Source: Variovorax paradoxus (GTDB lineage: Bacteria; Pseudomonadota; Gammaproteobacteria; Burkholderiales; Burkholderiaceae_C). Taken from it: a stretch of DNA of 64,000 bases. Below are positions 56,937 to 60,439 of the stretch, piece after piece; positions within the stretch are counted from its first letter, which is position 1; each line of letters opens with the position of its first letter. The stretch is taken from contig CP063166.1 in assembly GCA_016806145.1 (NCBI GenBank), forward strand, positions 1,612,001-1,676,000, read 5' to 3'. The notes beneath the pieces are model-generated. The model was not told the origin of the DNA and ran no database searches. It saw only the letters and a list, made by a program, of their open reading frames with translations. Both the position numbers and the translations under genes were made by a program.

Positions 56937-57953
56937 ATGTCCCGTTCCCGTCTCCTGCCCGACAACTTCACCCTCGCCCTGCTGTTGGTCGTCACCCTCG
57001 CGAGCCTCGTCCCCGCCAGCGGCCGTCCCGCCCAGTTCTTCGAGGGCCTGACCACGGTGGCCATCGGCCTGCTGTTCTTCCTGCACGGCGCCAAGCTCTC
57101 GCGCGAGGCGATCCTCGAGGGCATCACCCACTGGCGGCTGCACCTGCTGGTGTTCGCGAGCACCTTCGTGCTGTTCCCGCTGCTCGGGCTGGCGTTGAAG
57201 CCGGTGCTGGTGCCGCTGGTCACGCCCGAGCTCTACACCGGCGTGCTCTACCTGTGCGTGCTGCCCGCGACCGTGCAGTCGGCGATCGCCTTCACGGCGA
57301 TGGCGCGCGGCAACATGCCGGCGGCGATCTGCAGCGCCTCGGCCTCGACGCTGCTGGGGGTGTTCGTGACGCCGGTGCTGGTGGGGCTGGTGGTACTGCC
57401 GCACGGCGGGCATGCGGCGTCGTCGTCGCTCGATGCGATCGGGCGGATCCTGCTGCAGCTGATGGTGCCGTTCGCGGCGGGGCATCTGCTGCGGCCGTGG
57501 ATCGGGGGCTGGGTGAAGCGGCGTGCGTCGGTGCTGAAGTTCGTGGACCAGGGGTCGATCCTGCTGGTGGTCTATACGGCATTCAGTGCGGCGGTGATCG
57601 AGGGGTTGTGGCGGCAGGTGCCGATGCATGCGCTGGTGGGGTTGCTGGTCGTGTGTGCGGTGATCCTGGCTTTGGCGTTGAGCCTGACTACCTTGTTGGC
57701 GCGCAAGCTGGGCTTCGATACTGAAGACGAGATCACTATCGTGTTCTGTGGGTCGAAGAAGAGTCTGGCTAGCGGGATTCCTATGGCGAAGGTTCTGTTC
57801 GCCTCGCATGCTGTGGGCGCTATCGTTTTGCCGCTGATGTTGTTTCATCAGATGCAGTTGATGGTTTGTGCTGTGTTGGCGCAGAGGTATGCGCGGCGGG
57901 AGGCTGGGGTTGCTGAGCCTTCTGCTGTTGGGGCTGCTGCTTCCTCTAAATAG
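56937..57953 (+). CDS. Bile acid:sodium symporter family (BASS) transporter
   Basis: 338 residues, nine or ten helices. TVAIGLLFFLHGAKLSREAILEGITHWRLHLLVF, LPATVQSAIAFTAMARGNMPAA and FCGSKKSLASGIPMAKVLF match the YfeH/SBF-like branch, whose members move organic anions with sodium. The last hundred or so codons (from about 57640) switch from G/C-ending to many T-ending codons (GCT, GTT, TCT, CCT), unlike the first two thirds. A large repeat island follows immediately. Confidence 0.88.
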   Translation: MSRSRLLPDNFTLALLLVVTLASLVPASGRPAQFFEGLTTVAIGLLFFLHGAKLSREAILEGITHWRLHLLVFASTFVLFPLLGLALKPVLVPLVTPELYTGVLYLCVLPATVQSAIAFTAMARGNMPAAICSASASTLLGVFVTPVLVGLVVLPHGGHAASSSLDAIGRILLQLMVPFAAGHLLRPWIGGWVKRRASVLKFVDQGSILLVVYTAFSAAVIEGLWRQVPMHALVGLLVVCAVILALALSLTTLLARKLGFDTEDEITIVFCGSKKSLASGIPMAKVLFASHAVGAIVLPLMLFHQMQLMVCAVLAQRYARREAGVAEPSAVGAAASSK

Positions 57954-58208
57954 CGGGTTGCTTTTTTTTGAGGCAGGAGCCGGGAATTCGCCCCGGCGGG
58001 CGAGTCACTTTCTTTTGCTTCGCCAAAAGAAAGTAACCAAAGAAAAGGCGACCCACTGTCTGCGTCCCTCCGCTTCGCTGCGGGCAACCTGCGGTGCTCG
58101 CGTTTCGCGGGGTCTCGCAGAACTCGCTCCGCTGCGCTGCGCTCAAACAGCTGCGAGCCCTTATCCGCGAAACGCTGCGCTCCTCGGCGCAGCCAGAGGG
58201 GGTGGGTC

Positions 58209-58343
58209 GGGCCTTTGCTTCGCTCGGCCTTGGAATGCCGCTCGGGCCATTGCTTCGCTCGGCCTTGCAATGTCGCTCGGGCCATCGCTTCGCTCGGCCT
58301 TGCAATGTCGCTCGGGCCATCGCTTCGCTCGGCCTTGTGTTTG
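58209..58343. repeat. 35-bp tandem repeats, left side of island
   Basis: Three full units (58209-58243, 58244-58278, 58279-58313) and a partial fourth share GGGCC, TCGCTTCGCTCGGCCTTG and GCTC; units two and three differ at one base. Two units in reverse orientation lie at about 58468-58513, making the array part of the island's symmetry. Confidence 0.88.
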
Positions 58344-58467
58344 TCTTGTCCCCTCTCCCTCTGGGAGAGGGCTAGGGTGAGGGCACCGGGCCTCACCAAG
58401 GGTTTGACGGTATCCACCGCCCGGAGCCCTCACCCCAGCCCTCTCCCAGAGGGAGAGGGAGCAAGAC
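58343..58467. repeat. Palindromic repeat family C, copy 2
   Basis: It begins TGTCTTGTCCCCTCTCCCTC and ends in its complement near GAGGGAGCAAGAC, with the same GGGCACCGGGC and CCGCCCGGAGCCC blocks as the copy at 5761-5885. It occupies the centre of the island. Confidence 0.85.
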
Positions 58468-58777
58468 CCGAAGCCGAGCGAAGCGATGGCCCGAGCGGAT
58501 GTCGTGTGGCCGAGCGAAGCAAAGGCCCGAATCACCCCCCTCTGGCTGTGCCGAGGAGCGCAGGGGAAAGCGGGATCAGGGCCGCAGCTGTCTGAGCGGA
58601 ACGAAGTGCAGCGAGTTCTGCGGACCCCCGCTTTCCCCGAGCACCGCAGGTTGCCCGCAGCGAAGCGGAGGGACACAGACAGCGGGGTCGCCTTCTTTTG
58701 CTTACTTTTCTTGGCGAGACAAGAAAAGTGAGTCGCCCGCCGGGGCGAGTCCCGGCCTACGGCCTAAAAAAAGAACC

Positions 58778-60439
58778 CTACCCTTCGATCTTCCCAAGAC
58801 GAGACTCTTTCAACCGAGAAGGCGCCAACGCCCCAGCCGACTCCAGAATCGGATAAGCAATAGAACAGATATGCGAATTGATCCGCTTCAGATCGCTGAT
58901 CAGATCGATATGCAATGAACTGGTCTCGATGCTCAACGTCGTCCGATCCGACAACCGATCCAGGTGCGTCGTCGCATAGGCCCGCTCCAGATCCCGAAAC
59001 CGAGCCTTCTCCTCGAGCAGCTTCTGCGCATCCCGAACATTCCCGTTCAGGAACACGCTCATCGACAGCCGCAGATTCGCCACCAGCCGCCCGTGCAGCT
59101 CGACGATCTCCGCCATGCCCGCTTCCGAGAAGTTGCGCTGCGGCTTGATCTTCTTGTCCTCCACGTCCTGGATCACCCGCTCGATGATGTCCCCGATCTG
59201 CTCCATGTTGATCGTGAAGCTGATGATGTCCGTCCAGCGCCGGCTCTCCTCCTCGCCGAGGGCCTCGCGCGAGATGCGCGTCATGTAGTACTTGATCGCC
59301 GAATAGAGCTCGTCCACGGTGTCGTCGAGCTGGCGCAGCTCCTGCGCGAGCTTGAGGTCGTTGCGGCGGATCACGTCGAGCACGCCGATCAGCATCGTCT
59401 CCACGATGTCGGCCTGGTGCAGCGCCTCGCGCGCGGCATTCGAGATCGCGAGCGTGGGCGTCGACAGCGCCGAAGGATCGAGGTGGTGCGGCCGCAGCGA
59501 GGCGGTCGAGGGCGCGGGCTCGGGCAGCATGCGCGTCACCAGCTTCGCCACCGTCTGCGTGAGGCCGATGAAGCCGATGCTGATGATGATGTTGAAGGCC
59601 AGGTGGAACAGCACCACGCCATGCGTGGGCGTCGGCAGCTGCGGCTGCACGTAGCGCAGCCAGAGGCCGACGAAGGGCGCGACCACCGCCACGCCCAGGG
59701 CCTTGAACAGCAGGTTGCCGATGGTCACCTGGCGCACCGGAATCGCCGACTTGGCCGTGGTCAGCACCGCGAGCAGGCCGCTGCCGAGGTTGGCGCCGAG
59801 CACCAGGCCGAGCGCGACGTCGAGCGGCACCACGTTCGAATTGGCCATGGTCGCCACCAGCAGCACCACCGCGAGGCTCGAGTACGAAGCGATCGCGAGC
59901 ACGGAGCCGATGGTGATCTCGAGCAGCACGTCGCTGCTGATCGAGGCCAGCACCGCGCGCACCGCCTGCGAGGAGAACAGCGGCTCGGTGGCTTCGACCA
60001 CCAGCTGGAGCGCCAGGAGCATCAGGCCCAGGCCGATGAAGACGCGGCCGATGCGGCCGGCCACGCTGGCCGGGCGGCTGATGAACAGCACCACGCCCAC
60101 GAAGATGAACATCGGCGAGAGCCAGGACAGGTCGGCCGAGAACAGCACCGAGATCAGCGCCGTGCCCACGTCGGCGCCGCGCATCACCGCCAGCGCCGCG
60201 GGCAGGGTGATCAGGCCCTGGCCGACGAAGGAGGAGGTCATCAGCGAGGTGGCGGTGCTCGATTGCACCAGGGCCGTGACGCCGATGCCCGAGAGGGCGG
60301 CCGTGAATCGGTTGCGCATGCTCTGCACGAGGATCTTGCGCAAATTGGCGCCGAACACGCGAAGAACGCCGGTGCGCACGAGGTGCGTGCCCCACACCAG
60401 CAGGGCGACGGCCGCCAGCAGGTTCAGAAGATGCTTCAT
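58778..60439 (-). CDS. Na/Pi cotransporter family protein with PhoU-like domain
   Basis: 553 residues. The N-terminal membrane part (about 1-320) has the NptA repeats ALVQSSTATSLMTSSFVGQGL near 55 and VLGANLGSGLLAVLTT near 205. The C-terminal 200 residues are helical with PhoU-like features (ADIVETMLIGVLDVIRRND, NMEQIGDIIERVIQDVED). It likely moves phosphate with sodium, like YjbB. The last 40 codons, nearest the island, are rich in T-ending codons, mirroring the gene on the other side. Confidence 0.9.
   Translation of the reverse strand: MKHLLNLLAAVALLVWGTHLVRTGVLRVFGANLRKILVQSMRNRFTAALSGIGVTALVQSSTATSLMTSSFVGQGLITLPAALAVMRGADVGTALISVLFSADLSWLSPMFIFVGVVLFISRPASVAGRIGRVFIGLGLMLLALQLVVEATEPLFSSQAVRAVLASISSDVLLEITIGSVLAIASYSSLAVVLLVATMANSNVVPLDVALGLVLGANLGSGLLAVLTTAKSAIPVRQVTIGNLLFKALGVAVVAPFVGLWLRYVQPQLPTPTHGVVLFHLAFNIIISIGFIGLTQTVAKLVTRMLPEPAPSTASLRPHHLDPSALSTPTLAISNAAREALHQADIVETMLIGVLDVIRRNDLKLAQELRQLDDTVDELYSAIKYYMTRISREALGEEESRRWTDIISFTINMEQIGDIIERVIQDVEDKKIKPQRNFSEAGMAEIVELHGRLVANLRLSMSVFLNGNVRDAQKLLEEKARFRDLERAYATTHLDRLSDRTTLSIETSSLHIDLISDLKRINSHICSIAYPILESAGALAPSRLKESRLGKIEG

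What the first reader, a model, noticed from the sequence alone, without database searches (positions are those of the whole stretch)
57954..58777. 824-bp symmetric repeat island between convergent genes
Seen directly: arms of about 270 bp (57955-58228 and 58508-58775) are near reverse complements. Inside them are 35-bp tandem units in opposite orientations and, at the centre, a family C palindrome. This is a three-level nested palindrome with no convincing gene. It could be a non-autonomous mobile element, a built-up terminator, a nucleoid-protein or recombination site, or a structured RNA made from either flanking gene. Inner blocks such as the AAAGAAAGTAACC stretch look like motifs I recall from intergenic regions of other proteobacteria, but I cannot verify that here.
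Basis: seen in the sequence. Interest (0 to 1): 0.75.

Follow-up and report, generated by a model that had tools for sequence, protein, structure and literature searches.

The report
Triplex repeat that mutates its flanks
This intergenic island belongs to a widespread bacterial repeat whose folded ends appear to leave one strand of the neighbouring DNA unpaired again and again, slowly turning C into T in the adjoining genes in one direction only.

Summary
The 824-bp palindrome is real, one of at least 15 two-armed copies in this genome. Each ~270-bp arm starts with a GC hairpin and a conserved fold: pyrimidine strand, purine strand, then a purine linker mirroring the purine strand (214 of 216 parsed sites), plus a covarying pseudoknot: a class II intrastrand-triplex layout. 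The "family C" centre is an inverted pair of the known BoxC/TM_ECO motif. The surprise is outside. On the strand running into each arm, C falls from ~0.36 to ~0.17 and T rises from ~0.15 to ~0.31 (33 of 33 outer flanks). The same gene in relatives shows this where an arm abuts it, not where no arm matches. The effect is one-sided at single arms, ignores fork direction, depends at most weakly on gene direction, continues in close relatives, is absent at one apparently recent insertion, and can outlast the element. BoxC alone shows no such gradient. An exact 26-mer of the core occurs across Beta- and Gammaproteobacteria, with similar skew. Best mechanism (inferred): the fold stops polymerase copying that strand, leaving a gap whose cytosines deaminate. 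Nine literature searches found no report of this footprint.

The parts
57954..58777 (.). whole two-armed element
57954..58230 (+). left arm, sense on + strand, outer end at left
   Evidence: about 270-bp unit, found alone or in inverted pairs with outer ends facing out
58508..58777 (-). right arm, sense on - strand, outer end at right
57987..58004 (+). outer GC hairpin P1 of the left arm
   Evidence: sequence; stem letters vary with pairing kept by eye, but the tested helix is only 51.6% paired in alignment A1, its register differing between groups
58008..58053 (+). left core: Y strand 58008-58017, R strand 58024-58033, mirror purine linker 58039-58046, pseudoknot 58019-58023 with 58047-58051
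58686..58728 (-). right core, variant stem (CTTTTCTTG / CAAGAAAAG / AAAAGAA) with the same layout
58100..58175 (+). inner hairpin of left arm, GCGTTTCGCGG/CCGCGAAACGC
   Evidence: right arm has GGGGAAAGCGGG/CCCGCTTTCCCC in its place (58563-58638)
58202..58337 (.). 35-bp tandem units, left side; number varies between copies
58473..58530 (.). 35-bp type units, right side, inverted
58351..58383 (+). BoxC/TM_ECO intrastrand-triplex motif
   Evidence: pattern from PMC4666352
58427..58459 (-). second BoxC/TM_ECO motif, inverted
57354..57953 (+). left footprint: C depletion and T gain on + strand, inside the SBF_like gene (limits approximate)
   Evidence: third-position C 0.16, 0.16, 0.45 and T 0.33, 0.07, 0.00 in the last three 300-bp bins
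58778..59080 (-). right footprint: C-to-T on - strand, inside the Na/Pi cotransporter gene (limits approximate)

Best explanation
Each arm is a polar, structure-forming DNA repeat. SHOWN: the outer end of the arm carries a conserved pyrimidine-purine-purine layout with a covarying pseudoknot. The strand that runs into the arm accumulates C-to-T changes in the adjoining flank, decaying over a few hundred bases, on the outer side; carriers have it and matched non-carriers do not. INFERRED: when DNA is single-stranded at a fork, the sense strand of the arm folds into a hairpin, pseudoknot and triple helix. The polymerase copying that strand always moves from the inner to the outer side of the arm, as leading or as lagging enzyme depending on fork direction, and stops there. 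The template just beyond (the outer flank) stays single-stranded until it is refilled, and its cytosines deaminate. Over evolutionary time this gives the C-to-T gradient. The element itself is a non-autonomous repeat that spreads by an unknown route and can be lost by deletion between short repeats, leaving a scar.
For: Gradient on the strand toward the element at 18 own loci and in 33 of 33 outer flanks. 25 two-armed loci of relatives: 46 of 48 sides lower C, 47 of 48 higher T. Orthologous right gene, 69 loci: 10 with an arm abutting have third-position C 0.12-0.25, T 0.18-0.34; 53 without an arm match have C 0.41-0.56, T 0.00-0.11. Left gene: 9 loci with element C 0.13-0.20, T 0.23-0.33; 16 without C 0.29-0.42, T 0.02-0.07. 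C>T 0.257/0.234/0.200/0.078/0.022/0.017 with distance in the carrier clade and 0.286/0.257/0.154/0/0.012/0.007 in the window's own lineage, against 0.02-0.06 in another element-free clade; G>A is not raised. Same sign relative to the arm when a gene's 5' end faces it: 20 of 21 arm-bearing loci have third-position A 0.20-0.34, against 0.02-0.06 at 6 loci with no visible trace. Single arms: outer T above inner T in the first 100 bp in 7 of 7. Origin- and terminus-facing sides do not differ (13 pairs, p 0.95 and 0.59). Ongoing: C/T differences 2-9 times higher between close carrier pairs within 450 bp, 1.6-2.2 times beyond. One apparently recent insertion has no footprint: L287. Fold. Polymerase block by such motifs in vitro, and purine triplex not formed in RNA, as reported in PMC4666352.
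Against: No fold, arrest or gap was measured. Hairpin folding energy is not strand-specific: the antisense strand folds at least as well (z -5.3 against -3.45), so polarity rests on the triplex/pseudoknot alone. BoxC, a triplex shown in vitro, leaves no clear footprint in this genome (19 outer sides), so a triplex as such is not enough; PMC4666352 also cites an earlier study that found polymerase block in vitro but no effect in vivo. Footprints are a little stronger where genes point at the arm (C loss 0.156 against 0.126, p 0.013; T gain p 0.19), so transcription may contribute. Near several single arms inner C is also below its far value, without T gain (e.g. L042 0.26 and 0.20), and beyond 100 bp L025 is not one-sided in T. 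L286 shows C-to-T-like composition of opposite polarity with no element. The L019 orthologues were uninformative. L287 could also mean that its lineage lacks the process. In three of four copies whose right core is split by an insertion sequence that side has lost less C than the left, in the fourth more: not a test.
Confidence: 0.45

Rival explanations
1. Nick at the outer end. A nickase or structure-specific nuclease cuts the antisense strand at the outer end of each arm, and 5'-to-3' excision outward exposes the sense strand of the flank.
For: Gives the same one-sided strand polarity and is independent of fork and gene direction. The short tract (e-fold about 180 bp for T) would suit long-patch excision (recalled).
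Against: No nick site or dedicated enzyme was identified or searched for. Does not by itself explain why the pseudoknot/mirror layout is kept across classes of Proteobacteria.
Confidence: 0.2
2. Transcription running into the arm stalls at its hairpins; the displaced non-template strand deaminates (R-loop).
For: Right strand for convergent genes; a GC hairpin followed by a T-rich stretch looks terminator-like (by eye); slightly stronger where genes point at the arm.
Against: Strong footprints with the same polarity relative to the arm where the gene is transcribed away from it (12 sides; L017 locus).
Confidence: 0.12
3. Double-strand breaks at the palindrome with resection: deamination of the 3' overhangs.
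For: Right strands on both sides of two-armed copies; long palindromes are known break sites (recalled).
Against: Single arms are largely one-sided; a two-ended break would scar both sides.
Confidence: 0.1
4. Insertion preference or insertion burst: elements land in C-poor sequence or mutate the flank on arrival.
For: None beyond the correlation.
Against: Orthologues of the same genes without an arm match are not C-poor; L287 has the element and no footprint; substitutions continue after species split.
Confidence: 0.04
5. Selection for C-poor flanks, for instance to keep Rho off the transcript.
For: C-poor, G-rich RNA disfavours Rho loading (recalled).
Against: Same polarity on the antisense side of genes; decay with distance and absence at a recent insertion fit mutation.
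Confidence: 0.04

Closest known systems
BoxC / PIT / TM_ECO intrastrand triplex motif (Holder et al. 2015, PMC4666352; abstract, introduction, part of methods, sections 15, 16, 19 and the first part of 20 read)
   Same: The element's centre matches the published pattern twice in inverted orientation; the outer core has the same class II order (pyrimidine, purine, reverse-Hoogsteen purine). BoxC is linked there to variable flanks, above all within 500 nt, and to deletions.
   Different: The outer core is A/T-rich, carries a covarying pseudoknot and sits in a 270-bp structured arm; deamination and skew are not mentioned in that paper's main text (supplements not seen), and BoxC alone shows no clear gradient here.
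MITEs and other non-autonomous inverted-repeat elements
   Same: Multi-copy, no transposase, inverted ends, intergenic.
   Different: Arms are long and conserved in structure; no transposase with the same ends was met in the loci examined; no clear target duplication.
REP/BIME with RAYT transposases
   Same: Palindromic intergenic repeats in inverted pairs that serve as targets for insertion sequences (recalled).
   Different: The one Y1 transposase match in this genome has no arm beside it, and no perfect hairpin stem of 9 bp or more in the 3.3 kb around it.
Mobile insertion cassettes (recalled)
   Same: In other genera the arms can enclose one unrelated gene.
   Different: No insertion sequence with these ends was met.
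Non-B DNA mutagenesis (H-DNA, GAA repeats; review PMC12708500, abstract and passages seen)
   Same: Structure-induced, strand-specific single-stranded gaps are the proposed intermediate there, for eukaryotic forks.
   Different: Here a one-sided C-to-T signature is read from natural bacterial genomes.

Membership tests
BoxC/TM_ECO | CCCTCNCCCN3-6GGGNGAGGGN3GGGNGAGGG | tested here: met
   58351-58383 + and 58427-58459 -; concerns the centre only
class II intrastrand triplex | Y-R-reverse-Hoogsteen order, stem 6-15, loops 1-6, A opposite T and G opposite C in parallel register | tested here: met
   stem 8 (left) and 7 (right), loops 6 and 5; 214 of 216 parsed sites exact, 8 of 9 stem types
class II intrastrand triplex | folds as a triplex in solution | not testable with these tools
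   needs CD/NMR
MITE | terminal inverted repeats, no coding capacity | tested here: met
MITE | target-site duplication | tested here: inconclusive
   the apparent short repeats in the G063/G064 pairs read as deletion junctions by eye
MITE | autonomous partner with same ends | tested here: inconclusive
   only insertion sequences inside arms here and unrelated open reading frames elsewhere; no systematic search
REP/RAYT | RAYT gene flanked by the repeat | tested here: not met
diversity-generating retroelement or other RT-driven mutator | reverse transcriptase in the genome | tested here: not met
   no PF00078 match in arm-bearing G047 and G060, of 14 genomes searched, 8 with a match
bidirectional terminator between convergent genes | confined to gene 3' ends | tested here: not met
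   12 of 33 outer flanks have the coding signal pointing away (crude codon model)
known Rfam RNA | match above gathering score | tested here: not met
   window stretch and 10 other loci; microRNA hits at the centre are below threshold

The most novel reading that the evidence does not exclude
A widespread family of chromosomal repeats in Beta- and Gammaproteobacteria acts as a polar mutator: a pseudoknotted single-strand triplex repeatedly halts synthesis of one strand and drives directional C-to-T evolution of neighbouring genes, making these repeats natural recorders of single-stranded gaps.
Probability: 0.45. Interest if true: 0.92.

Novelty: new variant of a known kind. Interest (0 to 1): 0.82.

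Why it matters
If true, it gives a natural readout, in many sequenced genomes, of where and on which strand replication leaves single-stranded gaps, and shows that non-coding repeats can steer the codon use of neighbouring genes. It would also give the BoxC-type triplex repeats a relative with a measurable trace in living genomes: PMC4666352 cites polymerase block in vitro but none in vivo in an earlier study, and reports genomic instability whose mechanism it calls unclear.

Tried and rejected
Rejected: RAYT/REP origin; reverse transcriptase as a requirement; known Rfam family; fork-direction-dependent arrest; transcription as sole cause; insertion preference or burst. Phage or plasmid origin finds no support: no phage match; of 47 plasmid records with a match none covers 80% of the query, one Comamonas plasmid covers 42%, the other 24 listed cover 5-7%, 22 were not listed. 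Inconclusive: the L019-orthologue locus, where all five arm-less sequences keep palindromic remnants and the values overlap (third-position A 0.10-0.22 without, 0.02-0.28 with an arm); sequence context of C-to-T (5' A 0.68, T 0.34, C 0.22, G 0.21 at third positions) is confounded by codon degeneracy, so I do not use it. Literature: searches (listings and abstract starts seen) showed no description of the arm, its core string or the footprint; two papers were opened; supplements, preprints and most subscription journals were not searched.

Full report
Observation. No convincing gene lies inside. The neighbours are an SBF_like transporter (+) and a Na/Pi cotransporter with PhoU domain (-), convergent. 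The genome holds 74 BLAST matches to the 824 bp, with 40 of 76 candidates scored. Reading together, I count at least 15 two-armed copies (four split by an insertion sequence), three single arms and one fragment. 57 of 61 genus genomes searched, own included, have a match. The genus is probably Variovorax: among the titled loci the window's left arm is most similar to Variovorax sp. MHTC-1, but the titles of L243-L282 were not shown and the genome itself is unnamed.

Architecture. The unit is the arm of about 270 bp. Where two arms are together their outer ends face out: all own pairs and 25 of 25 two-armed loci of relatives, and 23 of 24 adjacent pairs within 1500 bp in other genera (the exception is a tandem 81 bp apart). 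The centre differs between species. Here it is an inverted pair of the motif known as BoxC or TM_ECO: 58351-58383 and 58427-58459 fit the published pattern. In other genera nine pairs are more than 650 bp apart; in six of them I judged an open reading frame between the arms plausible, three of these with a Pfam domain above cut-off.

Fold. Each arm starts with a GC hairpin, then Y strand CTTTCTTTTG, a loop, R strand CAAAAGAAAG, a short linker, AAAGAAAA, and GGCGA, which pairs with the loop. The purine linker is the parallel complement of the Y strand in 214 of 216 parsed sites. Over nine distinct stem types eight are exact (shuffled mean 1.3, maximum 6). The pseudoknot pairs fully in 203 of 216 sites; by distinct combinations it is 7 of 16, where shuffles give mean 3.5 and maximum 8, so that count alone is not significant. 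In an alignment of 51 sequences the hairpin and the pseudoknot are 96.0% and 96.6% paired, and two of the four pseudoknot pairs change on both sides; over the whole tested structure the covariation score is 0.204, against 0.094 for shuffles (0 of 500 reach it) and at most 0.126 for slid versions. Many of these loci were fetched by an exact 26-mer, which fixes part of the stem, so variety is underestimated. Order and register are those of a class II purine-motif intrastrand triplex; by PMC4666352 such motifs block DNA polymerase in vitro and the purine motif cannot form in RNA. Folding energies are low on both strands. No Rfam family reached its threshold on the arms.

The footprint. On the strand running 5' to 3' toward the element, pooled over 18 own loci (both sides, the inner sides of three single arms included), C is 0.174 in the last 100 bp on the left and 0.178 on the right, against about 0.35 beyond 700 bp; T is 0.31 and 0.29 against about 0.15; G rises slightly, A hardly changes. 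Using 200-bp windows, all 33 outer flanks have less C and more T than 700-1700 bp away. The T excess fits an e-fold of about 180 bp; the C fit is poorly bounded. Relatives show the same. In other genera, 67 sites had enough flank among the 80 listed loci: C is lower near the arm in 64, T higher in 49.

Cause or coincidence. I compared the same right-hand gene in 69 loci, the window and 68 of the 100 relatives. Ten with an arm abutting: last-300-bp third-position C 0.12-0.25, T 0.18-0.34. 53 without an arm match: C 0.41-0.56, T 0.00-0.11; 16 of these still have the left gene within 28 bp. The remaining six: L147 keeps only an outer end (0.23/0.22); L133 and L134 have lost most of the element (0.30/0.17 and 0.32/0.16); L098 has its arm about 100 bp away (0.39/0.12); L090 has a single arm facing the other gene (0.54/0.04); L153 has a 22-bp gap (0.35/0.06). 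The left gene agrees: nine loci with element C 0.13-0.20, T 0.23-0.33; 16 without C 0.29-0.42, T 0.02-0.07; L133, L134 and L153 lie between. On a tree of the distal part of the right gene the window's lineage and a clade of other carriers are separate, so two acquisitions are likely. Against the element-free sister consensus, C>T falls with distance as 0.257, 0.234, 0.200, 0.078, 0.022, 0.017 in the carrier clade and 0.286, 0.257, 0.154, 0, 0.012, 0.007 in the window's lineage, and stays 0.02-0.06 in another element-free clade. G>A is not raised; G>T is somewhat raised near the arm, perhaps through C, and C>G is high in the 200-300 bin. Close carrier pairs differ by C/T at 0.062/0.110/0.045/0.060 of third positions in the first four distance bins, against 0.013/0.024/0.020/0.007 for element-free pairs; beyond 450 bp the values are 0.036/0.026 against 0.022/0.012. 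The process seems to continue, though pairs were hand-picked and overlap.

Polarity. At seven single arms the outer 100 bp have more T than the inner 100 bp (0.23-0.42 against 0.06-0.19); in the next 200 bp this holds for five of six with data, L025 being the exception; inner C is also low near some arms, without T gain. The fragment without outer end (L026) has a weak effect. At the L017 locus the 5' end of a gene faces the arm: of the 30 best orthologous loci, 21 have an arm and 20 of these have third-position A 0.20-0.34 in the first 150 nt (that is C-to-T on the template strand); six with no visible trace have 0.02-0.06; three with remnants have 0.08, 0.16 and 0.34. The one arm-bearing exception, L287, is 98.5% identical to a sister (L288) that carries only a remnant, apparently a deletion at a short direct repeat, while six other sites show no trace: most simply a recent insertion, not yet scarred. 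At the L019 locus the comparison was uninformative. Over own copies, gene direction changes the footprint little (C loss 0.156 for 21 sides pointing at the arm, 0.126 for 12 pointing away, p 0.013; T gain p 0.19) and origin-facing and terminus-facing sides do not differ (13 pairs, origin from dnaA). Sixteen loci with BoxC but no arm show no clear gradient (19 outer sides: C 0.331 near, 0.354 far; T 0.162 and 0.147; both shifts in 11 of 19).

Mechanism. One-sidedness argues against two-ended breaks, gene-direction independence against transcription as the main cause, symmetry against one-directional fork arrest, and absence of a reverse-transcriptase match in two carriers against retro-copying. 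A strand-specific obstacle in the template fits: the enzyme copying the sense strand always meets the arm from its inner side, whichever way the fork runs, so the uncopied stretch is always the outer flank. The review PMC12708500 (abstract and passages) argues that structures mostly produce strand-specific single-stranded gaps, for eukaryotic forks. That deamination in such gaps makes the C-to-T is inference. The strongest points against are that the antisense strand also folds well and that BoxC, a triplex shown in vitro, is nearly silent here; the pseudoknot-locked arm may simply be a better block, or a nickase may be involved.

Novelty. Intrastrand triplex repeats, inverted non-autonomous repeats and non-B mutagenesis are known kinds. 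The arm with its pseudoknot and mirror linker, and the polar C-to-T footprint, were not found in nine literature searches (listings seen).

Noticed in passing
L013:3958-5090, L015:3895-4699, L021:3915-5042, L014:4207-5485: Three copies have an IS30-like element (family name recalled; HTH_38 and rve domains for the L021 protein) in the linker between R strand and mirror purine; a fourth has an IS481-like element (LZ_Tnp_IS481) in the hairpin loop. Two unrelated insertion sequences use the fold as target.
   Followed up: partly
L200:3665-5054, L201:2738-5041, L217:782-1884, L222:2761-3940, L262:980-1970, L267:984-2028: In other genera the inverted arms can enclose one unrelated open reading frame each (RDD family, DUF2441, PD40 repeats; three without a Pfam match above cut-off): cassette-like cargo.
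   Followed up: partly
L134:2863-3378: In a close relative the interior of the element is replaced by a small open reading frame (antibiotic-monooxygenase-like by eye only) between the outer ends.
   Followed up: no
L286, first 600 nt of the gene: C-to-T-like composition on the coding strand (opposite polarity) next to a site without any visible element; unexplained.
   Followed up: no
window:58202-58337: The 35-bp units vary in number between copies (this copy has the most of the 11 aligned), a possible strain marker.
   Followed up: no
L029:916-2160 (frame): The genome's only Y1 (RAYT-like) transposase match has no arm beside it and no perfect hairpin stem of 9 bp or more nearby.
   Followed up: partly
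L262:2275-2387: A guanidine-I riboswitch lies near a cargo-bearing copy.
   Followed up: no
L225:513-538: The 26-mer also hits a metagenome bin labelled Lewinella (not a proteobacterium); binning error or transfer not checked.
   Followed up: no
window:57848-58918, several frames: Long spurious-looking open reading frames run through the arms; such frames may be annotated as hypothetical proteins in databases (the annotation remark is recalled).
   Followed up: no
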